Source: Massilibacillus massiliensis (GTDB taxonomy: Bacteria > Bacillota > Negativicutes > FLKF01). Taken from it: DNA of 64,000 bases. Positions 2,093 through 39,046 of the stretch are shown here, in pieces. The notes below the pieces were generated by a model, which was given only the letters and a program-made list of their open reading frames with translations, searched no databases and was not told where the DNA came from. Position numbers and translations under genes: made by a program. The DNA lies in contig NZ_LT575483.1 of assembly GCF_900086705.1 (NCBI RefSeq), positions 1,631,534 to 1,695,533 on the forward strand, given 5' to 3'. Numbering within the stretch: the first letter of the stretch is position 1; each line of letters begins with the position of its first letter.

Positions 2093-3124
2093 TCAAGAAT
2101 TCGTTCTAACTGACTTTTTTGTTTTCAAAATACCAAGTTTCTTCGCCCCAATAAATACAACTAACATCACAGCAATGATAATTGCAATCGCGAACCCACT
2201 GCTGACCTCGGTCAGCGCAATCGCACTCAAACCTAAAACCCCGCTGATGACATACATTAAAAGTACTGCCTGTCTTTGCGTGAACCCCAAATCAAGCAAA
2301 CGATGATGCAAATGTCCTCTATCAGGTTTAAAAATCGGTTTCCCGCTCATGTAACGTCTAACAATCGCAAATGCAGTATCCAAGATTGGCAGACCTAGTG
2401 CAAAAATAGGCACAATCAACGCAATAGTCGCAGCCGACTTTACTGCACCAATCACAGAGATACCCGCCAGCATATACCCTAAAAACATACTGCCAGTATC
2501 CCCCATAAAAATCTTCGCCGGATTGAAATTATACTGTAAAAACCCCAGCGCTCCGCCAGCGATCGCCGCTGTCAACACTGCAATAAGTATATAATTCTGC
2601 TGCAATGCAACCAACAAGATTGTAATCGAAGCAATCGTAGAAACACCAGCAGCAAGACCATCAAGACCATCAATTAAGTTAACCGTATTTGTAAGGCCTA
2701 CAATCCAAAATATCGTCACCGGCACTGCTAAATATTCCAGATAAATCATATCACCAAAAGGATCACTAATCCAATCGATACGAATATCAAACAAAACCAA
2801 TACTAAAGCCGCAATGATTTGACCAGCCAGCTTTACTTTAGCCGGTAAATTTTTTAAATCATCAATTACACCGACAGCCAAAATTACCGTGCCGCCGAGC
2901 AATAGTCCTATAATCTCCGTCGTTAAATCAACCGTAAAAAAAACTGCTACCATAAAGGCAACATATATAGCAAGACCACCCATTCTAGGGATAGGAGCAG
3001 TATGCACTTTGCGTTCATCAGGAGCATCCATAGCTCCAGCTTTTTTAGCTAAGGAAATAATTTGCGGCGTTAATACATACGCTATGACAAGCGCAATGAA
3101 AAACGACAAAATATAATCCGGCAT
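2093..3124 (-). CDS. tagO: undecaprenyl-phosphate GlcNAc-1-phosphate transferase (TagO/WecA family)
   Basis: A 343-residue membrane protein with about ten hydrophobic segments. It would transfer GlcNAc-1-phosphate from UDP-GlcNAc to undecaprenyl phosphate, the first step of teichoic-acid-like, O-antigen-like or other surface glycans. Family motifs visible: GAMDAPDERKVHTAPIPRMGG, VGVIDDLKNLPAKVKL, NLIDGLDGLAAG, KIFMGDTGSMFLG and the late DRGHLHHRLLDLG histidine motif. The ATG at 3124 has an AAAGAGGTG site 9 nt upstream; a GTG four codons earlier overlaps that site and is less likely. The next gene, wecB, acts on the same nucleotide sugar. Confidence 0.93.
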   Translation of the reverse strand: MPDYILSFFIALVIAYVLTPQIISLAKKAGAMDAPDERKVHTAPIPRMGGLAIYVAFMVAVFFTVDLTTEIIGLLLGGTVILAVGVIDDLKNLPAKVKLAGQIIAALVLVLFDIRIDWISDPFGDMIYLEYLAVPVTIFWIVGLTNTVNLIDGLDGLAAGVSTIASITILLVALQQNYILIAVLTAAIAGGALGFLQYNFNPAKIFMGDTGSMFLGYMLAGISVIGAVKSAATIALIVPIFALGLPILDTAFAIVRRYMSGKPIFKPDRGHLHHRLLDLGFTQRQAVLLMYVISGVLGLSAIALTEVSSGFAIAIIIAVMLVVFIGAKKLGILKTKKSVRTNS

Positions 3125-14695: not shown

Positions 14696-15595
14696 TGTAG
14701 ATTTTCAGGATGGGTCAATTTGAAGTCAAATGAAGCATTATCTGTAATTGATAAATTAGCAATTTACATTTCATTATGAGTCAATTCGAAGTGAGAGGTG
14801 TAAAAAACATGACTGATATGATCAAAAATTTACATTTCATTATGAGTCAATTCGAAGTGCATTAGCATTCACACAGAACAAGTGTTTTATTAATTTACAT
14901 TTCATTATGAGTCAATTCGAAGTTTTCGCAATAAATCAGATAGTTTGCTATTAGCCCAAATTTACATTTCATTATGAGTCAATTCGAAGTGTAGACTTTT
15001 ACAATTTCTGTTGTACGTTCGCCGTCATTTACATTTCATTATGAGTCAATTCGAAGTGCAGCTCCAACACACTCCAATGCTTGGAGCAAAATCATTTACA
15101 TTTCATTATGAGTCAATTCGAAGTTTGCCTCTTTAATTCCTCATCATAAGCATCTACTTCATTTACATTTCATTATGAGTCAATTCGAAGTTTGATCATT
15201 TAAAACAAATGCATCATCTGAAATTACATTTACATTTCATTATGAGTCAATTCGAAGTATTAATTGATCCATTTCCCGCCCCTCCCACTTCTTTTATTTA
15301 CATTTCATTATGAGTCAATTCGAAGTTATCGGCATTCACTTCGTGCAACTGTTAAAAAATATATTTACATTTCATTATGAGTCAATTCGAAGTCCAAATA
15401 GCTTATATGCGTATACGACTGACGATGCAATTTACATTTCATTATGAGTCAATTCGAAGTGATATATTAGGACTAAGCCAACAAGCAATTGCTAAAATTT
15501 ACATTTCATTATGAGTCAATTCGAAGTCGGCAACAGAAGGTAAATAATCGTAAAGTACGATTTAATTTACATTTCATTATGAGTCAATTCGAAGT
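14696..15595 (-). CRISPR. CRISPR array 1 (13 full repeats plus a degenerate terminal repeat)
   Basis: Thirteen near-identical 31-nt repeats from 14762 to 15595, period 65-68 nt, beginning ATTTACATTTCATTATGAG and ending TTCGAAGT on the plus strand. A fourteenth, degenerate copy lies at 14696-14726 exactly one 66-nt period to the left and keeps GTCAATTTGAAGT. The reverse complement ends in ATGTAAAT, the expected 8-nt 5' handle of type I-B crRNA, so transcription runs on the minus strand, the degenerate copy is the old end, and the leader is on the right. Spacers are 34-37 nt. Repeats carry the GAGTCAA variant. The repeat matches arrays 2 and 3, so all use the same Cas6. Confidence 0.97.
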
Positions 15596-15790
15596 ACGTA
15601 CCTAAACAAAGCCTTATTTTTCAATATTAATTTCATCATTTTCTGTCTATCTACTATTATATATCATATTTACATAGAAATCTGCAAAATAATTTTATTT
15701 CAATCACTCATTATCCCAATAAACATCTGCATTTGTGCATATCTGTCGTACCCCATATAAAATTGCATTTTTACAGGTCGACAGATCGAA
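15596..15790 (-). promoter_or_regulatory. leader of CRISPR array 1
   Basis: AT-rich leader nearly identical to that of array 3. It has the GCCTTATTTTTCAATA block next to the first repeat, the CTGTCTATCTACTATTATA block, and an inverted repeat TCTGTCGTACC (15742-15752) / GGTCGACAGAT (15776-15786). The CTG of the left arm is 148 nt from the array. Confidence 0.85.
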
Positions 15791-16102
15791 AAATTTTATG
15801 TTTTATTATTCTAATCAGACCTTCTGAATATTTCTTCAATATTCTCTTTGGATGTCCATGATTATTTTTCTTGGTATCGTTTTTCTACCGATACCGATCT
15901 AAAAAATCAAAATAGCCTGCCATATACTGCGTTACTACTCTAACTACAACGATAAACTTTTTTTTCGTAGCAATTACCCAACACGCAAATGATGTATTGT
16001 TTATAGTCAGAAAACATGGATTATACAGATCATAAATCGTTGTTCTTATACCAAAACTTGCGCAACTGCGTCCAAATTAACAAACCCTTTCATTTTTTAA
16101 CA

Positions 16103-16131
16103 TAAGAAAAGACAGCCTAAAATTTGAGCTG
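16103..16131 (-). terminator. minus-strand terminator opposite the small ORF
   Basis: Read on the minus strand, GACAGC...GCTGTC followed by TTTTCTT. No minus-strand protein gene lies upstream, so it would end a non-coding transcript running antisense to the small ORF at 16213-16305. Confidence 0.55.
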
Positions 16132-16171
16132 TCTCGACTGGTAATATTATGTTAAAATAAAGACCGGACTA

Positions 16172-16193
16172 GCACGAACTAGTCCGATTAACT
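16172..16193. other. 5' hairpin upstream of small ORF
   Basis: CGGACTAG / CTAGTCCG, an 8-bp perfect stem with a 6-nt loop, placed just before the AGGAGGTGAT ribosome site of the 30-residue ORF. It could protect the mRNA or control access to the ribosome site. Confidence 0.5.
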
Positions 16194-16212
16194 GAATACA
16201 GGAGGTGATACC

Positions 16213-16305
16213 TTGAAGTTTCGTTTCTCGCTCGAAATAGAAGGAACGGTACTTATTAAGGTAATGGCGCTTTTGACTTTTATCCTTAAAGTGATGTTCA
16301 CCTAA
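16213..16305 (+). CDS. small hydrophobic peptide (30 aa) between CRISPR arrays
   Basis: A TTG-initiated 30-codon ORF directly behind an ideal AGGAGGTGAT site. The peptide starts MKFRFSLEIEG and ends with a hydrophobic helix (TVLIKVMALLTFILKVMF). It has its own 5' hairpin and a 3' terminator. An opposing terminator at 16103-16131 suggests an antisense transcript. This layout resembles type I toxin-antitoxin units and the CRISPR-linked creTA units known from other type I systems, but no repeat-like antitoxin sequence of good quality was found. I do not recognise the peptide family. It could also be a harmless small membrane protein. Confidence 0.45.
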   Translation: MKFRFSLEIEGTVLIKVMALLTFILKVMFT

Positions 16306-16316
16306 TGCATTCAACC

Positions 16317-16345
16317 GAAACGTCCTGTTCTCCGCAGGGCGTTTT
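16317..16345 (+). terminator. terminator of small ORF
   Basis: CGTCCTG / CAGGGCG stem (one G-U pair) followed by TTTTTGGTTT on the plus strand, 15 nt after the stop codon of the 30-codon ORF. Confidence 0.7.
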
Positions 16346-16495
16346 TGGTTTATATAGTATATGTTCATTATATGCGATTTCATACGTATTGTAAACTGCC
16401 ATAACATATACGTAAAATAAGTCTTTTAGTTCATTAATTCTTTCTTTAATTGTTTTATATTTGTGTTAAGTACAAATTACTTTTTCTTTTGTCTC

Positions 16496-18132
16496 ATTTA
16501 CATTTCATTATGAGTCAATTCGAAGTATCTTTAAAAAGTTTATAGTCTGTTGTGCATTATTATTTACATTTCATTATGAGCCAATTCGAAGTAAGATACG
16601 AGGCGTAATTTGCCGTATCAATGCCAACATTTACATTTCATTATGAGCCAATTCGAAGTTGTCCCTGTCGTGTGATCTCCTAATCTCGTTACCGCATTTA
16701 CATTTCATTATGAGCCAATTCGAAGTGTTATTGAGGGCGGACAAGCAGGCGCATTACAGGAATTTACATTTCATTATGAGCCAATTCGAAGTTGACCTGA
16801 TTTTTGCTTGATACCTCGATTGTATAAAAATTTACATTTCATTATGAGCCAATTCGAAGTTTATCTAGTGAATTGCGTAAATATTGCATGGTGAAATTTA
16901 CATTTCATTATGAGCCAATTCGAAGTTTAACAATCTTTGCGCGTAAAACTAACCTGTATTCATTTACATTTCATTATGAGCCAATTCGAAGTCTAACCGC
17001 TGTTGCCGTAGAACTGCTGTAAAGACCATTTACATTTCATTATGAGCCAATTCGAAGTTCAATGATTTCGCTACAAAGCCAATCATGGCAATCCAATTTA
17101 CATTTCATTATGAGCCAATTCGAAGTTAAATACATGATTGATTACGATGCAAATAATTACTTATTTACATTTCATTATGAGCCAATTCGAAGTAGCGACT
17201 ACTCCATAGATGTCATTAGGTTTATCACCATTTACATTTCATTATGAGCCAATTCGAAGTAAACAAGTTCTCAATCCTCATTAATTGATTTTTACCGATT
17301 TACATTTCATTATGAGCCAATTCGAAGTAAAAGATGCTAAAAACTTAAAACTTATACCTAGCAAATTTACATTTCATTATGAGCCAATTCGAAGTATCTA
17401 ATCTCCTTGACTGCTTCTTTAACATCCGCAAATTTACATTTCATTATGAGCCAATTCGAAGTTAAGAGCACCTAAGATGCAAAAAACATATTACTGCACA
17501 TTTACATTTCATTATGAGCCAATTCGAAGTAAATTAGCGATGAAACAATAGATTTAGCGGTACAAATTTACATTTCATTATGAGCCAATTCGAAGTAAGA
17601 GCAATGAAATTATAAGAGGTGTTCATGATGAAATTTACATTTCATTATGAGCCAATTCGAAGTAAATGATAGGTGTCCCATTCCTGCCAGAAGTACCGAT
17701 TTACATTTCATTATGAGCCAATTCGAAGTACGTGAACAACGCTTCACACGTATTTTCTCGAATCTCCATTTACATTTCATTATGAGCCAATTCGAAGTGG
17801 GATATTTGGTCAGATATAGTGATGATTATATTTCAATTTACATTTCATTATGAGCCAATTCGAAGTTCTATAACTTCTATTTTTCCATCAGTGTAATGTG
17901 AATTTACATTTCATTATGAGCCAATTCGAAGTGCTATATTCTCAGCCTCATCGCAAAGAACTTTCACATTTACATTTCATTATGAGCCAATTCGAAGTTA
18001 AAGTCATGCGGAAGATCGCAAGCATAAATTTAAATTTACATTTCATTATGAGCCAATTCGAAGTCGACAGGCTAAAAAGCACATCAAAAGTGATTACGTT
18101 TATTTACATTTCATTATGAGCCAATTCGAAGT
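16496..18132 (-). CRISPR. CRISPR array 2 (25 repeats, next to cas2)
   Basis: Twenty-five 31-nt repeats, 24 spacers. The leftmost (oldest) repeat at 16496-16526 has GAGTCAATT as in arrays 1 and 3; the other 24 have GAGCCAATT. Transcription is on the minus strand, as shown by the ATGTAAAT 3' end of the reverse-complement repeat. The leader lies between the array and the cas2 stop codon. No degenerate terminal repeat is visible on the left. This array is contiguous with the cas operon and is the likely site of most adaptation, though it is not the longest. Confidence 0.98.
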
Positions 18133-18323
18133 CTTTGCCCTCACGAAGCCTTATTTATCAATACCAAAATCATTATTTTCTGTCTATCTATTATTATATA
18201 TCATATTTATCCATAAATCTGCAAAAATATTTTCTGGCAAACCGTCCGCAGGCCATTGATTCTCTCGCTTTGTCCATGTCTGTCGTACCCCCGCCTTTTT
18301 TACAGTATCGGAGGTCGACAGAT
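18133..18323 (-). promoter_or_regulatory. leader of CRISPR array 2
   Basis: It starts at the stop codon of cas2. The blocks GCCTTATTTATCAATA and CTGTCTATCTATTATTATATATC are kept, the middle part differs from the other two leaders, and the inverted repeat TCTGTCGTACC (18279-18289) / GGTCGACAGAT (18313-18323) is retained at the same distances. The right arm overlaps the first base of the cas2 stop codon. Confidence 0.85.
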
Positions 18324-18601
18324 CAGATGAAGTTTGATGTTTTATCTTCTTCCTGCACCACGAACTCTTTCTTCATCCATATATTATTTCTCCCTCTAAA
18401 GATGATGCAAGAATCGATACCTTCTCGTAATTGTTCCCGCACTTCTGCTTTTAAAGAAAGCAGCTGACTTTCTGAAAGCTCACCTTCAAAGACGGAATTT
18501 TGAATATGGGTTAAATATTTTTTACAGGTTTTAAAAACACGGCGCAAAATTTTTGGGCCTTCTTTATCCAGTTTTATATCATAGACCAATACCATATACA
18601 T
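18323..18601 (-). CDS. cas2: CRISPR-associated endonuclease Cas2
   Basis: 92 residues. Part of the Cas1-Cas2 integrase that inserts spacers. The N-terminus MYMVLVYDIKLDKEG has the ferredoxin-like beta strand ending in the conserved YD; LRRVFKTCKKYLTHIQNSVFEGELSE is the usual second element. The ATG at 18601 follows GGTGGTGA inside the end of cas1; the frame 14 codons longer overlaps cas1 and is unlikely. It is the last gene of the cas operon; the array 2 leader begins at its stop codon. Confidence 0.93.
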   Translation of the reverse strand: MYMVLVYDIKLDKEGPKILRRVFKTCKKYLTHIQNSVFEGELSESQLLSLKAEVREQLREGIDSCIIFRGRNNIWMKKEFVVQEEDKTSNFI

Positions 18602-26551: not shown

Positions 26552-27556
26552 CTATTTCATTTTTCCTATCACTTTTACATCTTCTATGAGCAAACCAATA
26601 TCCCCATCACTCTGCAAATTCCTATTCGCATCAAACAGCTCGTATTGCTTAACTGCCAATTCTTTTGCTATCTCCGCTGATACTTTTCCCGCATTTTCCA
26701 GCACCTGCCTATTGGTAAATTGTAAAAACGCATTTAACTTGGCTTCCCAATCTGCCATATGCATGGGAATATGCTGCTTTGCCTGATCATCCGCATAATC
26801 CAGGTACATTACCACAATACGATTTAACGCTTCAATTTCTTCTTGTGTTAGATAATTTTTCGCTATATCGATATCACCTTTACGAACTTTTGCTCCTTTA
26901 AAAGAGGTAAGTCCCATATTGGGTTTTGTCGCATCAGCACGTTCTGCAATCAGTTCAGCCGCAGTATGTCCATGTACGCTATAATGCATTTTATTCTGCA
27001 CCGTTTGAAAAAATCGCTTTGTACTTTCCAGCTTTGCATCATAGTCAATGGAGGTTTTATAGATTTCTGCAATTTTTTGATAAAACCGCTGTTCTGACGC
27101 ACGAATATCTTTAATTCGTTCAAGCAACTCATCAAAATAATCAATTCCAAATACCTGCGGATTTTTTAGCCGTTCATCATTCATCGCAAAACCTTTTTTG
27201 CTGTACTCTGTCAATATACTTGATGCCCAATTGCGAAAATGCATTCCAACGTTAGAACGAACTCGATAACCAATCGCTAAAACCATTTGAAAATTATAAT
27301 GTTTGATATTACGTTTGATCTGTCTATTTCCCTCATTTTGAACTTGTAAGTATTCCTTACAAGTTGCATCCTCAAATAATTCGCCATCCGCATAAATATT
27401 TTTTATATGTAACGTTATATTCTGTGAAGATGTTTGATACAATTCAGCCAAACTTTTCTGCGACAACCAGATCGTATCACCTTCAAAATAAACATCGAGT
27501 TTCGTATCACCTTTTTCATTCTGATAAATAAGAATTTTGCCCAATACATCCTGCAT
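26552..27556 (-). CDS. RhuM-family virulence/DNA-binding protein
   Basis: 334 residues. The N-terminal half carries the RhuM signature: VYFEGDTIWLSQKSLAELYQ (helix-turn-helix-like), ITLHIKNIYADGEL, NEGNRQIKRNIKHYNFQMVLAIGYRVRS and FRNWASSIL. RhuM proteins are common in Salmonella islands and near mobile or defence loci; their function is not settled. The start ATG at 27556 follows AGGAGGTATGTTT. It lies upstream of the cas operon on the same strand, 100 bp apart, and probably has its own terminator or shares nothing with cas. No sign of truncation. Confidence 0.85.
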   Translation of the reverse strand: MQDVLGKILIYQNEKGDTKLDVYFEGDTIWLSQKSLAELYQTSSQNITLHIKNIYADGELFEDATCKEYLQVQNEGNRQIKRNIKHYNFQMVLAIGYRVRSNVGMHFRNWASSILTEYSKKGFAMNDERLKNPQVFGIDYFDELLERIKDIRASEQRFYQKIAEIYKTSIDYDAKLESTKRFFQTVQNKMHYSVHGHTAAELIAERADATKPNMGLTSFKGAKVRKGDIDIAKNYLTQEEIEALNRIVVMYLDYADDQAKQHIPMHMADWEAKLNAFLQFTNRQVLENAGKVSAEIAKELAVKQYELFDANRNLQSDGDIGLLIEDVKVIGKMK

Positions 27557-27767
27557 AAACATACCTCCTGCTCACTAAAAAACAACGTAATAGTTTTCAT
27601 CTCACTGAATTGTAGTAAATCTATCTCCATTCATTGTTATACATCTTGCTTCTAACACTTAAACTTCCAAACAACTTCCTATTAACTCCACATTTCCCTA
27701 TAAAAAATAAAGTTCCTGCCAAAGTAATACATAAATTAGCAGAAACTACACCTATCCATATATATCC

Positions 27768-33439: not shown

Positions 33440-35357
33440 TAGCATCAATCAGCATATATAAATTCGAAGTTTTCAGTTTCATATTTTCAAAAGATTTCTC
33501 GCCGACATTTACATTTCATTATGAGTCAATTCGAAGTTTACAATGATGTGTTGCTAGAACTTGAACATGCGCGCATTTACATTTCATTATGAGTCAATTC
33601 GAAGTGTTTTGGAGTAAAATAGTATCTTTATGTGAAAAAAATTTACATTTCATTATGAGTCAATTCGAAGTTTAGATAACTTAATCGAAAATGCATGTGA
33701 ACATAGATTTACATTTCATTATGAGTCAATTCGAAGTCTTATCATGATATGTATTTGAGGGAAGGGGCATAAAAATTTACATTTCATTATGAGTCAATTC
33801 GAAGTCTCATCTAAAAGCTGCTGACCACCTTTATTACCATTATTTACATTTCATTATGAGTCAATTCGAAGTAACAAAAGAAAAGGCTGAATAAGCCTTA
33901 TTTTTATGATTTACATTTCATTATGAGTCAATTCGAAGTTTCTAAGCTTTCGATATTATTGTACAAAATTTTGTACATTTACATTTCATTATGAGTCAAT
34001 TCGAAGTCGCGAAGAATAATTATATATTTAGTCGAGTGATGTGAATTTACATTTCATTATGAGTCAATTCGAAGTTTAAGTACAAAAAAGAATTAATTCA
34101 AAGCAAAAAGAATTTACATTTCATTATGAGTCAATTCGAAGTGCCAATGCGAAGTATATCAAGTCACAGATGCAGAGACATTTACATTTCATTATGAGTC
34201 AATTCGAAGTGAACTTTTTTTGCATCGTCAACACTCTTAATCATAGCATTTACATTTCATTATGAGTCAATTCGAAGTATATTTAAGAGGTACAACAAAC
34301 CCGGACCCGGATTCATTTACATTTCATTATGAGTCAATTCGAAGTTATTTTTATGCCCATATGCAAAGAGGGGAGGTGAAAATTTACATTTCATTATGAG
34401 TCAATTCGAAGTAAAATATCGAATCTATCGTATCAAATGCAGTGCGTGAATTTACATTTCATTATGAGTCAATTCGAAGTTTAATTTGGCTGGCATTATA
34501 AATCGAATCTTTCGTAATTTACATTTCATTATGAGTCAATTCGAAGTTCACCCCAATAATGCCACCTTCACCGTTCACAACAGAATTTACATTTCATTAT
34601 GAGTCAATTCGAAGTGATGCATTAAAAGAGTATCCATTTGTATTCCTAACACATTTACATTTCATTATGAGTCAATTCGAAGTCGGCACAAAACCTTTAG
34701 GGATCGACAGTAATAAGCCTATTTACATTTCATTATGAGTCAATTCGAAGTGCATTGATTCCTTGTTTACTTAGCAAGTCCGTTTGAAATTTACATTTCA
34801 TTATGAGTCAATTCGAAGTTAACATGCTTACATACTGAATGCTTAAGTAATCGTAAATTTACATTTCATTATGAGTCAATTCGAAGTAAGCCACAAAGAC
34901 ATCAATTGGAACGTGTGGAATAGATTTACATTTCATTATGAGTCAATTCGAAGTTCCAAATCCGCCCGTCAAACACTGTGATGGATCTATTATTTACATT
35001 TCATTATGAGTCAATTCGAAGTGTTCGGAGAATTCAAATTGAATACTATCGAAGAAGCATTTACATTTCATTATGAGTCAATTCGAAGTTGTGAGTTTCA
35101 ACAGAGTTGGCATTTGGACAACGTAATTTACATTTCATTATGAGTCAATTCGAAGTCTGCTTTTCTATGTTTCCTCCCATACTTCTCAAATGCATTTACA
35201 TTTCATTATGAGTCAATTCGAAGTATGGTCAGCTTCAACAATAATAACTAATTTTTCAGATTTACATTTCATTATGAGTCAATTCGAAGTAAAATCAATA
35301 AAAATTCAATGCGTTGCAACTGGTGCATTTACATTTCATTATGAGTCAATTCGAAGT
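33440..35357 (-). CRISPR. CRISPR array 3 (28 full repeats plus a half-degenerate terminal repeat)
   Basis: Twenty-eight 31-nt repeats from 33507 to 35357 with the GAGTCAATT variant and 34-37-nt spacers. To the left, at 33440-33470, only AAATTCGAAGT of a repeat remains at the right spacing, so this is the decayed old end. The leader is on the right and nearly identical to that of array 1. There is no cas gene beside it; it must use the cas operon 7 kb to the left. It is the longest of the three arrays. Confidence 0.98.
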
Positions 35358-35550
35358 CCGTACCTACACAACGCCTTATTTTTCAATATTAATTTCATCA
35401 TTTTCTGTCTATCTACTATTATATATCATTTTTATATAGAAATCTTCAAAATAATTTTATTTCAATCACTCGTTATCCCAATAAATATCTGCATTTGCTC
35501 AGATCTGTCGTACCCCATATAAAATTGCATTTTTATAGGTCGACAGATCA
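35358..35550 (-). promoter_or_regulatory. leader of CRISPR array 3
   Basis: Nearly identical to the array 1 leader. Inverted repeat TCTGTCGTACC (35504-35514) / GGTCGACAGAT (35538-35548), again with the CTG of the left arm 148 nt from the array and 34 nt between arm starts. Confidence 0.85.
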
Positions 35551-35632
35551 AATAACATTTTAAGATCTATTGCTTTTATCGGTTTTCCGATAATTCATAT
35601 ACGTTTCATAAAAAACTTAAATTCTAAAATGA

Positions 35633-35663: not shown

Positions 35664-36680
35664 TCATCTTTCAAATTTTCCACGAAGATATTGTTCTTGC
35701 CACTGGATATCTGCGTGTAATTCATGAGCGGCACGCAATGGCCAGTAAGGATCTCGGAGTAAATGCCGCCCTAAAAAAACGAAATCAATGCCTGATTTTA
35801 TTATTTGTTCCGCTTGATGTGGTTCTGTAATTAATCCACCACCAATTACAGGCAATCCGGTATGTTGTTTAATCGTTGCGGCAAAAGCAATCTGATAGCC
35901 GGGATATGCTCTGACAGGTGCTGAAATGACTGCACCGGAACTTACATGAACAATGTCGATTCCCTTTGATTTTACCAAATTAATCATAACCGCTATATCT
36001 TCCGGTCTGTTACCTGCCGGATCATATTCTTCTGCAGAAACACGAACAAATATAGGATAATCAGCGGGAACGACCTCACGTACAGCTTCTAAAACTTCAT
36101 CTAAGAAACGAGCCCTATTTTCCAGACTGCCACCATATTCATCCGTTCTTGTATTGGCTAATGGGGATAAAAACTGATTTATCAGATATCCATGTGCAGC
36201 ATGAATTTCAATTGCATCAAAACCGGCAGCTAAAGCCCGTTTTGCGGCATTTTTAAATAATAGTACAGTTTGTTTAATTTCTTCTTTTGATAATGCATGT
36301 GGCATACGATGTTCTTCACTGAAAGCGATTGCCGAAGGAGCCACTGGCTCTAAAGCAGTTACTTCACTTTTTCGTCCAGCATGATTGAGCTGTATTGCCG
36401 CTTTTACTCCATAGCTATGTATCGCTCCCACAATTTTACCCAGTCCGTCAACTTGCTGGTCGTCCCATATTCCTAAATCCCTATCAGAAATACGCCCACG
36501 TTTTTCTACACCCGTTGCCTCCACAATAATCAGTCCGGTTTGACCTGCTGCCCTTGTAGCATAATGAACAATATGCCAATCATTAACCATACCATCTTGT
36601 GCAGAATACATACACATCGGCGGCATAACAATACGATTTTTAAGCTCCAAGTTTTTAATTTTAAATGGTGAAAATAGCAT
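35664..36680 (-). CDS. namA: NADPH dehydrogenase, old yellow enzyme family (NamA/YqjM-like)
   Basis: 338 residues. FMN-dependent reductase of alpha,beta-unsaturated carbonyls. Motifs: LKNRIVMPPMCMYSAQDGMV with the Cys typical of the YqjM class, QLNHAGRKSE, the substrate His pair in AIEIHAAHGYLINQFLSP, NTRTDEYGGSLENRARF and the FMN phosphate site VIGGGLI...DFVFLGRHLLRDPYWPLRAA. Start behind AGGGAGTAATGAAAG. It stands between a CRISPR array and two binding proteins, alone in its transcript; a terminator lies on either side. Confidence 0.93.
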   Translation of the reverse strand: MLFSPFKIKNLELKNRIVMPPMCMYSAQDGMVNDWHIVHYATRAAGQTGLIIVEATGVEKRGRISDRDLGIWDDQQVDGLGKIVGAIHSYGVKAAIQLNHAGRKSEVTALEPVAPSAIAFSEEHRMPHALSKEEIKQTVLLFKNAAKRALAAGFDAIEIHAAHGYLINQFLSPLANTRTDEYGGSLENRARFLDEVLEAVREVVPADYPIFVRVSAEEYDPAGNRPEDIAVMINLVKSKGIDIVHVSSGAVISAPVRAYPGYQIAFAATIKQHTGLPVIGGGLITEPHQAEQIIKSGIDFVFLGRHLLRDPYWPLRAAHELHADIQWQEQYLRGKFER

Positions 36681-36783
36681 CTTTCATTACTCCCTTCAGC
36701 ATTGAGGATATTTACTATTATGTAGTTTCGACTATAAAACAATTGATTCCTCTATCGTATTAAATAAAATATCATAGATTATT

Positions 36784-36825
36784 AAAATAAACACAGACAA
36801 AAAAATTTATGCCTGTGTTTATTTT
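36784..36825. terminator. bidirectional terminator
   Basis: A perfect 13-bp stem AAAATAAACACAG / CTGTGTTTATTTT (36784-36796 with 36813-36825), between the binding-protein gene and namA. Confidence 0.85.
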
Positions 36826-36866
36826 GGATTTGATATGCTATATAATTTAACAATTCAAAAATATAC

Positions 36867-37883
36867 TTAATTTTTCTGTGCTTTAATTTGCTCTAAAATT
36901 CCGGTTTCTGTAATTGTCTTAGACAAGGTTTCACCATCTAAGCTCCATTTTTCTTTTGATTCTTCTGAATTTAAATAGTTTACTTGCAAGCCTAAATTTT
37001 CTGCATTAATCTGAAATTCTGGATCAGCAACCATTTCCTTCAAGCCTTTTTCGAGTCTGGCTTTAATTGCCGGCGGTAATTCTTTTGGTGCTACTACGCC
37101 ACACCAATTATTAAATATATTATCAATTCCTACTTCTTTAAAAGTTGGTATTTGTGCTAAGTCTGAGTCAACCAACCTCTTTTCACCCGTTGTAGCTAGT
37201 GCTATTAGTGCACCACTTTTAATTTGTTCTTTAACTATTGCTGGACTAACAAAACCAATCTGAACATGACCACCTAATAAAGCAGCAGTCACCTCACTAT
37301 TTCCACGAAAAGAAACTTGTTTTAACGAAATTCCGGCAGATTTAGCAAAGGCTTCACCAAGAACATGCGATGGTGAGCCGATTCCTGGAATTCCACATTT
37401 TACTTCTTCTGGATGTTGTTTTACATAACTAATTAGGGCATTAATGTTTTGATAGGGCTGTTTTGCTGAAGTTACCATGATCTGCGGCAGAGAGGCAATT
37501 TGAGCAATTGGCTCTAAAGCAGTTGGGTAATGGTATTTTGTTGATCCATATAATGGCTGGATAATGACATCAATTGCGCTAATACCAATCGTATAACCGT
37601 CTGGACTAGCGTTCACTAGTTCATTCCAGCCAATTGTTCCAGCGCCCCCCGGCTTGTTAACAACAACTAAAGGCTGTCCTAAATATTTAGGTGCCATCTT
37701 TTCCAATGATCGAGCCATAAGATCCAATCCGCCACCAGCACTAAAAGGTACAATAATGGTAATAGGTCTATCTGGATAATTTTTTATTGCAGTTGTTGTT
37801 TGACTTTGCATATCCGTACATCCTCCCAGCAATATTGAAATAAGTACTCCCCCCGCGATTAGCGCAATAATACGTCTTTTCAC
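36867..37883 (-). CDS. tripartite tricarboxylate transporter receptor (TctC/Bug), lipoprotein
   Basis: 338 residues. A type II signal with lipobox ISILLGGC near residue 22. The mature part starts NYPDRPITIIVPFSAGGGLD, the Bug signature, with QPLVVVNKPGGAGTIGW and GIPGIGSPSHVLGEAFA following. Bug proteins bind carboxylates (citrate, tartrate, aromatic acids) outside the inner membrane and deliver them to TctAB. No tctA or tctB is in the window. GTG start behind GGAGATGGTGTA. Close paralogue of the next gene, arisen by tandem duplication. Confidence 0.92.
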   Translation of the reverse strand: MKRRIIALIAGGVLISILLGGCTDMQSQTTTAIKNYPDRPITIIVPFSAGGGLDLMARSLEKMAPKYLGQPLVVVNKPGGAGTIGWNELVNASPDGYTIGISAIDVIIQPLYGSTKYHYPTALEPIAQIASLPQIMVTSAKQPYQNINALISYVKQHPEEVKCGIPGIGSPSHVLGEAFAKSAGISLKQVSFRGNSEVTAALLGGHVQIGFVSPAIVKEQIKSGALIALATTGEKRLVDSDLAQIPTFKEVGIDNIFNNWCGVVAPKELPPAIKARLEKGLKEMVADPEFQINAENLGLQVNYLNSEESKEKWSLDGETLSKTITETGILEQIKAQKN

Positions 37884-38029
37884 TACACCATCTCCTATTT
37901 ACATGTTCATAACTTCTTATATATTTTTTCTTCTCAATGTATCAACATACTCTACAATCTTTTATTAAACCTTCTAAAACCTACTATCCTTCTTACCTAC
38001 ATTTTTGCAACTCAAAATTTTCAGCATAC

Positions 38030-39046
38030 TTATTTTTTCTGTGCTTTAATTTGTTCCAAAATACCTGTTTCTTTTATTGTCTTAGACAATTTTTCACCAT
38101 CTTTGGACCATTTTTCTAATGAATCTTCGGAATTTAAATATTCTATCTGTAATCCTAATTTTTCAATGTTAATTTTAAATTCCGGATCTTCAATCATCTC
38201 TCTAAATCCAGTCTCTAGTCTAGATTTAACCTCTGGCGATAAACCTTTAGGCGCTGCTACACCATACCAAATATTTAATTCCATATCAAAGCCCAGCTCT
38301 TTAAAAGTTGGTATCTGTGCTAACTCGGAGTCAACTAACCTTTGTTCGCCAGTCATAGCCAATGCTCTCAAAGTACCATTTTTAATTTGTTCCTTAACTG
38401 TTGATGGGTTTACAAAAGCGATTTGCGTATGATTTCCTAATAAAGCAACGATTGCATCATTAACTCCACGAAATGGAACTTGTTCAAGGGTGATATCAGC
38501 AAATTTAGCAAACATTTCACCAGCAATATGTGATGACGATCCAATTCCTGCGTGTCCACATTTCAATTGACCGGGATGCTGTTTTGCATATTGAACAATT
38601 TCTTCTAAACTTTTCCATGGTTGTTCTGCTGGAACCACCATAATAAAAGGTAGATTTATGACTTGTGCAATAGGCTCTAAAGCAGTAGGGTAATGATATT
38701 TGGTTGTACCATATAATGGTTGTATCAATACATCTGTTGAGCTGGCTCCCAACGTATATCCATCTGAATTAGCAACAACCAATTCATTCCAGCCAATAGT
38801 TCCAGCCCCACCAGTTTTATTAACAACGATTAAAGGCTGTCCCAAATATTTAGGTGCCATTTTTTCCAAGGTTCTGGCTAAAAGATCTAATCCTCCCCCA
38901 GCACTAAAAGGTACAATCACTGTAATAGGTTTCGTAGGATACTTTTGTGTGGTACTTATCGTTTTACTTTGCATATCGGTACAACCTCCCATTAAAATTG
39001 AAATAAGGAATAACCCCGTTGCTAACGCAGTAATCCGTTTCTGCAC
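38030..39046 (-). CDS. tripartite tricarboxylate transporter receptor (TctC/Bug), lipoprotein, paralogue
   Basis: 338 residues, same length as the downstream copy and alike over the whole protein (lipobox ISILMGGC; KYPTKPITVIVPFSAGGGLD; QPLIVVNKTGGAGTIGW; KCGHAGIGSSSHIAGEMFA; C-terminus ETGILEQIKAQK). GTG start behind GGGAGATGGTGTA. Differences in the ligand loop suggest related but different carboxylate ligands. It is probably the first gene of the pair; 146 nt separate the two. Confidence 0.92.
   Translation of the reverse strand: MQKRITALATGLFLISILMGGCTDMQSKTISTTQKYPTKPITVIVPFSAGGGLDLLARTLEKMAPKYLGQPLIVVNKTGGAGTIGWNELVVANSDGYTLGASSTDVLIQPLYGTTKYHYPTALEPIAQVINLPFIMVVPAEQPWKSLEEIVQYAKQHPGQLKCGHAGIGSSSHIAGEMFAKFADITLEQVPFRGVNDAIVALLGNHTQIAFVNPSTVKEQIKNGTLRALAMTGEQRLVDSELAQIPTFKELGFDMELNIWYGVAAPKGLSPEVKSRLETGFREMIEDPEFKINIEKLGLQIEYLNSEDSLEKWSKDGEKLSKTIKETGILEQIKAQKK

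What the first reader, a model, noticed from the sequence alone, without database searches (positions are those of the whole stretch)
16103..16345. Candidate CRISPR-linked small toxin / antisense RNA unit between arrays 1 and 2
A 30-codon ORF (16213-16305) with an ideal AGGAGGTGAT site, TTG start and a hydrophobic C-terminal helix has its own hairpin before the start (16172-16193) and its own terminator after the stop (16317-16345). A terminator on the opposite strand (16103-16131) has no minus-strand gene before it, so an antisense RNA may cover the ORF. The layout is that of type I toxin-antitoxin units; CreTA modules that make CRISPR loci addictive are known from other type I systems and sit in or beside cas/array regions. 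I could not find a convincing repeat-like antitoxin sequence; the best is an 8-base TTCATTAT match near 16363.
Basis: partly seen in the sequence, partly recalled or inferred. Interest (0 to 1): 0.62.

Follow-up and report, generated by a model that had tools for sequence, protein, structure and literature searches.

The report
Multi-copy toxin/antisense-RNA module, not CRISPR-linked
The stretch between two CRISPR arrays is one of sixteen scattered copies of a small gene unit that very probably makes a 30-residue membrane toxin held in check by an RNA read from the opposite strand; it is a new family of a known kind of system, found so far only in a group of anaerobic bacteria (Negativicutes), and its place beside CRISPR looks accidental.

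Summary
The ORF, Shine-Dalgarno, hairpins and terminator are real, but this is not a one-off CRISPR accessory. The same ~290-bp unit occurs 16 times in this genome (10 with this peptide, 6 with a second, 28-residue peptide) and in five other Negativicutes genera. The peptide evolves as a protein. The mRNA's 5' hairpin doubles as the terminator of that antisense RNA. The mRNA folds end to end (z = -5.1), hiding the Shine-Dalgarno. Loops differ between copies while stems and signals are kept.

Best reading: a new family of type I toxin-antitoxin modules, working like Helicobacter AapA/IsoA. Toxicity and both transcripts are inferred, not shown.

The CRISPR/CreTA part fails. No repeat-like antitoxin exceeds chance; the 'TTCATTAT' clue is the antisense -10 box; no array was found within about 10 kb of the other 15 copies or of 16 loci from relatives (less where contigs end). 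One relative's copy lies in a prophage. No Pfam or NCBIfam family matches.

The parts
16103..16134 (-). Upstream minus-strand hairpin with T-rich tail (T2): second or back-up terminator of the antisense RNA, also in the path of array-2 read-through
   Evidence: Inverted repeat 16110-16134; similar T-tailed hairpins upstream of most copies
16129..16158 (+). Probable toxin promoter: -10 TAAAAT 16153-16158, weak -35 CTGTCT 16129-16134, 18-bp spacer
   Evidence: Aligned position in paralogues reads TTGACG-18-TATAAT (3478k, 1023k, 1028k, 1427k) or CTGTCY-17/18-TATAAT (3486k, 986k, 3581k, 1060k, G001); weak in the window itself
16163..16188 (+). 5' hairpin of the toxin mRNA; the same palindrome, followed by T on the minus strand, is the terminator (T1) of the antisense RNA
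   Evidence: all 18 copies: -14.8 to -22 kcal/mol, 5-7 T in the next 9 bases; changes on both sides with pairing kept at 7 of 9 pairs in class A
16194..16209 (+). 5' arm of the end-to-end stem, including the Shine-Dalgarno AGGAGGTGAT
   Evidence: Folding; duplex with the 3' arm better than shuffles in all 11 class A copies (p <= 0.038)
16213..16305 (+). 30-residue peptide ORF (class A): charged N-terminal part, C-terminal hydrophobic helix with two lysines; candidate membrane toxin
   Evidence: 10 paralogues; mismatch rate by codon position 0.28/0.17/0.37, dN < dS in 43 of 45 pairs; best 17-residue Kyte-Doolittle 2.32
16298..16312 (+). 3' arm of the end-to-end stem (TCACCT...GCATTC), last codons, stop and just beyond; pairs with the Shine-Dalgarno
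16317..16345 (+). Intrinsic terminator of the toxin mRNA; stem nearly invariant, loop variable
16163..16360 (-). Predicted antisense antitoxin RNA, about 198 nt, complementary to the whole toxin mRNA
   Evidence: Inferred from promoter 16395-16367 and terminator 16188-16163; transcript not shown
16348..16363 (.). GTTTATATAGTATATG, nearly invariant block at the 5' end of the antisense RNA
   Evidence: Pattern with up to 3 mismatches at 15 places in the genome, 0 with the reversed control
16367..16395 (-). Antisense promoter TTTACA-17-TATAAT
   Evidence: same distance from the terminator in 14 of 16 genome copies and in G001; equivalent -10 16-19 nt beyond TTTTGG in 10 members from other genera

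Best explanation
A type I toxin-antitoxin module of a previously unnamed family. A plus-strand promoter makes a ~180-nt mRNA: protective 5' hairpin, strong Shine-Dalgarno, 30-codon ORF, terminator. The full-length mRNA folds end to end so that the sequence around the stop codon pairs with the Shine-Dalgarno and keeps it largely shut; trimming of the 3' end would be needed to open it. A minus-strand promoter just beyond the terminator makes an antisense RNA complementary to the entire mRNA, ending at the inverted repeat that is the mRNA's own 5' hairpin. Loop-loop contact followed by full pairing would block translation and expose the duplex to RNase III. If antisense supply falls, the peptide inserts in the inner membrane and arrests growth. 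Shown by sequence: paralogy, protein-level conservation, both promoters and terminators, predicted mRNA fold, loop diversification. Inferred: transcription, processing, duplex decay, toxicity. The position between CRISPR arrays is incidental.
For: 16 copies in the genome with one architecture. Coding-type evolution. Hydrophobic peptides, mostly net positive. Conserved convergent promoters. T1 as antisense terminator in 18 of 18. Covarying 5' hairpin and end-to-end fold in both classes; SD/3'-end pairing in class A. Within class A the 5' loop and 3' loop are the most variable parts (0.60, 0.49) against 0.09 for the SD block and 0.06 for the terminator stem; no two of 16 copies share both loops. 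Same layout in G164, G001 and genera g77 and g81; the G164 copy lies beside a phage terminase small subunit, and type I modules are common in prophages (PMC6563280). A described system with this design exists: AapA/IsoA (PMC6733600).
Against: No transcript or toxicity data. The window's own plus-strand promoter is weak by consensus. Copies 1192k and 3488k lack the canonical antisense promoter (silent, another promoter, or the idea fails for them). Copy 986k has an altered C-terminus. SD/3'-end pairing is not better than shuffles in most class B and outgroup copies when only the two arms are compared. No hit to any named toxin family.
Confidence: 0.8

Rival explanations
1. The unit makes a non-toxic small membrane or signalling peptide under antisense control, kept in many copies for dosage or regulation rather than as a toxin.
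For: Toxicity is untested; copies sit beside housekeeping genes; the N-terminal half is variable.
Against: A dedicated full-length antisense gene, a hidden Shine-Dalgarno, a short hydrophobic peptide and loop diversification together are the usual signature of type I toxins.
Confidence: 0.13
2. A dispersed repeat (miniature mobile element) acting only as a bidirectional terminator, its ORF a relic.
For: 16 dispersed intergenic copies; terminator-like ends on both strands; a bias to lie downstream of a gene read in the antisense direction (14 of 16 right-hand neighbours, array 2 counted for the window copy, two-sided p 0.004).
Against: Codon-position pattern and dN < dS; conserved SD, start and promoters; no terminal inverted repeats; loops, not the ORF, are the fast-evolving parts.
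Confidence: 0.04
3. A CRISPR-regulated module (CreTA-like) in which the CRISPR effector with a repeat-like guide represses the toxin.
For: It lies between two arrays of a locus with cas1, cas3, cas5, DevR/Cas7-family, cas6 and CXXC-domain genes.
Against: Best repeat match 16-17 of 31, no better than shuffles; the 15 other copies and all relatives' loci examined are away from arrays; the antisense gene already explains the opposite-strand signals.
Confidence: 0.02

Closest known systems
AapA/IsoA type I toxin-antitoxin family of Epsilonproteobacteria (Helicobacter pylori; PMC6733600, PMC8309996)
   Same: 30-residue membrane toxin, several chromosomal copies, cis antisense RNA from its own promoter, full-length mRNA shut by a 5'-3' long-distance interaction that hides the Shine-Dalgarno
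   Different: Different phylum; IsoA3 is an 80-nt RNA, whereas here the predicted antisense RNA spans the whole mRNA and uses its 5' hairpin as terminator; common descent not tested
C. difficile CRISPR-adjacent type I modules (CD2907.1-RCd9, CD0956.2-RCd10, CD2517.1-RCd8; PMC6563280)
   Same: Convergent overlapping toxin and antisense genes, small hydrophobic toxin, next to a CRISPR array
   Different: Toxins of 50-53 aa with charged C-terminus; association with arrays is conserved across C. difficile strains and sigma-B controlled, whereas here 15 of 16 copies are away from arrays
TxpA/BsrG, BsrH/BsrE, YonT families of Bacillus subtilis (PMC6563280, PMC5848175)
   Same: Chromosomal type I modules in several families; antisense RNA and, for txpA-RatA, RNase III
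   Different: No Pfam or NCBIfam toxin-family match here; SR6 overlaps yonT only at its 3' end, here the overlap is full length
CreTA CRISPR-regulated toxin-antitoxin (PMC8501985, PMC9458426, PMC10097628)
   Same: Toxin-antitoxin module in a CRISPR-Cas neighbourhood
   Different: CreT toxins are RNAs and CreA carries degenerate CRISPR repeats; neither seen here

Membership tests
Type I toxin-antitoxin | Short (<60 aa) hydrophobic peptide with a predicted membrane helix | tested here: met
   30 aa; best 17-residue hydropathy 2.32, class A tested 2.28-2.80, class B 1.60-2.29
Type I toxin-antitoxin | The ORF is a real protein gene | tested here: met
   Codon-position mismatch 0.28/0.17/0.37 and dN < dS in 43 of 45 pairs among 10 paralogues
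Type I toxin-antitoxin | Antisense RNA gene with its own promoter and terminator opposite the toxin gene | tested here: met
   Conserved minus promoter and terminator, at sequence level only
Type I toxin-antitoxin | Antisense RNA is made and blocks toxin synthesis | not testable with these tools
   Needs RNA and translation experiments
Type I toxin-antitoxin | Peptide arrests growth when uncontrolled | not testable with these tools
   Needs an expression experiment
Type I toxin-antitoxin | Structured mRNA hiding the Shine-Dalgarno (common, not universal) | tested here: met
   z = -5.09; class A duplex p <= 0.038 in 11 of 11; weaker in class B
Named toxin families in Pfam / NCBIfam | Sequence match to a family model | tested here: not met
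   No family at E < 0.05
AapA/IsoA | 30-residue toxin in several copies, cis antisense RNA, 5'-3' interaction hiding the SD | tested here: met
   Design features only compared with PMC6733600
AapA/IsoA | Sequence homology of the toxin to AapA | not tested
   No AapA sequence was compared
CreTA | Repeat-like sequence(s) in the antitoxin gene | tested here: not met
   Best ungapped match 16-17/31, shuffle p 0.68-0.995
CreTA | Toxin is an RNA (as described for CreT) | tested here: inconclusive
   ORF conserved as a peptide argues against; RNA toxicity was not assayed
CRISPR-associated type I module as in C. difficile | Association with arrays recurs across copies and relatives | tested here: not met
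   Arrays of this repeat at four places only; no array found within about 10 kb of the other 15 copies or of 16 loci from relatives, less where contigs end
Miniature inverted-repeat element | Terminal inverted repeats | tested here: not met
   Only internal palindromes found in the window copy

The most novel reading that the evidence does not exclude
In this one locus the antitoxin is partly supplied by CRISPR array 2: its minus-strand precursor has no recognisable terminator before the module and would run on as extra antisense RNA to T1/T2, so loss of the array or of its transcription would free the toxin: addiction to the array by plain read-through, without CreA.
Probability: 0.05. Interest if true: 0.8.

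Novelty: new member of a known kind. Interest (0 to 1): 0.5.

Why it matters
The literature searches found no type I toxin-antitoxin module described in Negativicutes, the diderm Firmicutes (open-access papers only). A family with 16 diverged copies in one chromosome, each with its own loops, would be a natural test of how parallel antisense pairs avoid cross-talk. It also warns that a toxin module beside a CRISPR array need not be a CRISPR guard.

Tried and rejected
CreTA: no repeat-like sequence, no array association. Rfam: no match in the window. Phage and plasmid collections: no nucleotide match; viral contigs: none by DNA pattern or by peptide. The Runella, Marinobacter and Caldisericales pattern hits were not followed; by my estimate about two chance matches are expected for that pattern in that collection. 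Weak class A hits in g65 genomes were read and rejected: they lie in one repeated longer coding region and lack the SD/hairpin layout. Phylum-wide samples outside the class gave no match. In some copies the T2 hairpin merged with neighbouring sequence in simple folding, so T2 is less secure than T1. Structure prediction of a 30-residue peptide was judged uninformative and not run.

Full report
What is there. The arrays are read on the minus strand: the repeated leader-like sequence lies at the high-coordinate end of each (D5).

It is a multi-copy unit. A nucleotide search of the genome found further copies at once; peptide, pattern and context searches bring the total to 16. Ten encode the same class of peptide (class A, consensus MKFRFxLEIEGTVLIKVVALIAFILKVLFT). 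Six have the same architecture around a second, 28-residue peptide (class B, e.g. MQLEFGKLRLTISSKFILAVATLFELCR; one of the six with an altered C-terminus). The copies lie in gaps between ordinary chromosomal genes (neighbours judged by eye). Class B leads to relatives in other Negativicutes genera, with peptides such as MDLETKNFKLHVSSKFVIAVATALCMLAAIRW and the same signals. A class A copy in another genome (G164) lies between a phage terminase small subunit (PHROG 509, E = 1e-89) and a protein of a phage family with weak similarity to antiterminator Q, so in a prophage. In all, five other genera of the class have members, one of them only a decayed copy (G241). The class is Negativicutes, because G001, 'same class', matches the Massilibacillus MAG JARBTT01. 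Samples of about 380 genomes of other classes in the phylum gave nothing.

It codes for protein. Among ten class A copies the mismatch rate is 0.28, 0.17 and 0.37 at codon positions 1, 2 and 3, and dN is below dS in 43 of 45 pairs. The C-terminal half is hydrophobic with two lysines.

It has an antisense gene. On the minus strand TTTACA-17-TATAAT (16395-16367) points back over the ORF. The promoter stands 52-54 nt beyond the ACCG of the terminator, with 10 or 11 of 12 consensus bases, in 14 of 16 genome copies and in G001; copies 1192k and 3488k lack it, and G164 has only a weaker candidate elsewhere. In ten members from other genera a -10 lies 16-19 nt beyond the terminator's TTTTGG with a -35 at 17-18 nt, two of them at 11 of 12, the others weaker. 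The antisense RNA would end at the inverted repeat 16188-16163: in all 18 copies that palindrome is stable (-14.8 to -22 kcal/mol) and followed on the minus strand by 5-7 T in 9 bases. The same palindrome is the 5' hairpin of the mRNA.

The mRNA shuts itself. The window mRNA folds to -61.6 kcal/mol, z = -5.09. Consensus folds of class A and class B agree on three parts: 5' hairpin with many compensatory changes, end-to-end stem, terminator. In class A the arm with the Shine-Dalgarno pairs with the arm at the stop codon better than shuffles in all 11 copies (p <= 0.038); in class B and outgroup copies most are not better than shuffles. Copies with an extra base before the SD (1060k, 2623k, G164) are also ones with extra pyrimidines in the 3' arm, which keeps the pairing. 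This is the design described for AapA/IsoA, where a 5'-3' interaction blocks translation until the 3' end is trimmed (PMC6733600).

Loops diverge. In class A copies of this genome the mean pairwise difference is 0.60 in the 5' loop and 0.49 in the terminator loop, 0.48 in the 5' stem (pairing kept), 0.09 in the SD block and 0.06 in the terminator stem; no two of 16 copies share both loops. I take this as selection for, or tolerance of, pair-specific recognition; it is an inference. In C. difficile mostly only cognate antitoxins act (PMC6563280).

No CRISPR link. Arrays of this repeat exist at four places, three in the window and one near 3235k. A simple array finder sees none in about 10 kb either side of the other 15 copies, nor around 16 loci of relatives, some on short contigs. 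No part of the region resembles the repeat beyond chance. With 16 copies in 4 Mb, one falling among these arrays needs no special cause (roughly a 5-10% event by my estimate). C. difficile does have type I modules tied to arrays (PMC6563280), so the neighbourhood is not absurd, but here the tie does not recur. One link stays open: array 2's transcript has no terminator-like site before the module and could add antisense RNA by read-through.

Verdict. A new family of type I toxin-antitoxin modules, confidence about 0.8 for the kind, with toxicity and transcripts untested; the CRISPR reading is rejected.

Noticed in passing
G000:C6 986768, 3580971, 1616009, 2917576, 2961936, 3485992: Second peptide class (such as MQLEFGKLRLTISSKFILAVATLFELCR) in the same promoter-hairpin-SD-terminator-antisense frame, as if the toxin cassette had been exchanged or had diverged inside a constant shell.
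   Followed up: partly
L071 near 3589 (1192k), L073 minus strand (3488k): Two copies with intact peptide but without the canonical antisense promoter (3488k by a ~16-nt deletion).
   Followed up: no
all 16 copies in G000: The right-hand neighbour is transcribed towards the unit, in the antisense direction, in 14 of 16 (array 2 counted for the window copy; two-sided p 0.004), so read-through would make antitoxin rather than toxin.
   Followed up: partly
window 16496-16526: The repeat at the trailer end of array 2 reads GTCAATTCG like arrays 1 and 3, whereas the other array 2 repeats read GCCAATTCG.
   Followed up: no
window 15565-15793, 18102-18330, 35327-35555: Leader-like sequences of arrays 1 and 3 are about 94% identical, that of array 2 only 73% to array 1.
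   Followed up: no
window 26552-27562: RhuM-family gene directly beside cas6 on the same strand.
   Followed up: no
window 35664-39046: Three tandem ORFs of 338 codons each, two of them about 77% alike in DNA over stretches, unidentified.
   Followed up: no
L133 (G241:C111, about 3030-3085): Relative with conserved 5' part but early stop and no terminator: a decayed copy.
   Followed up: partly
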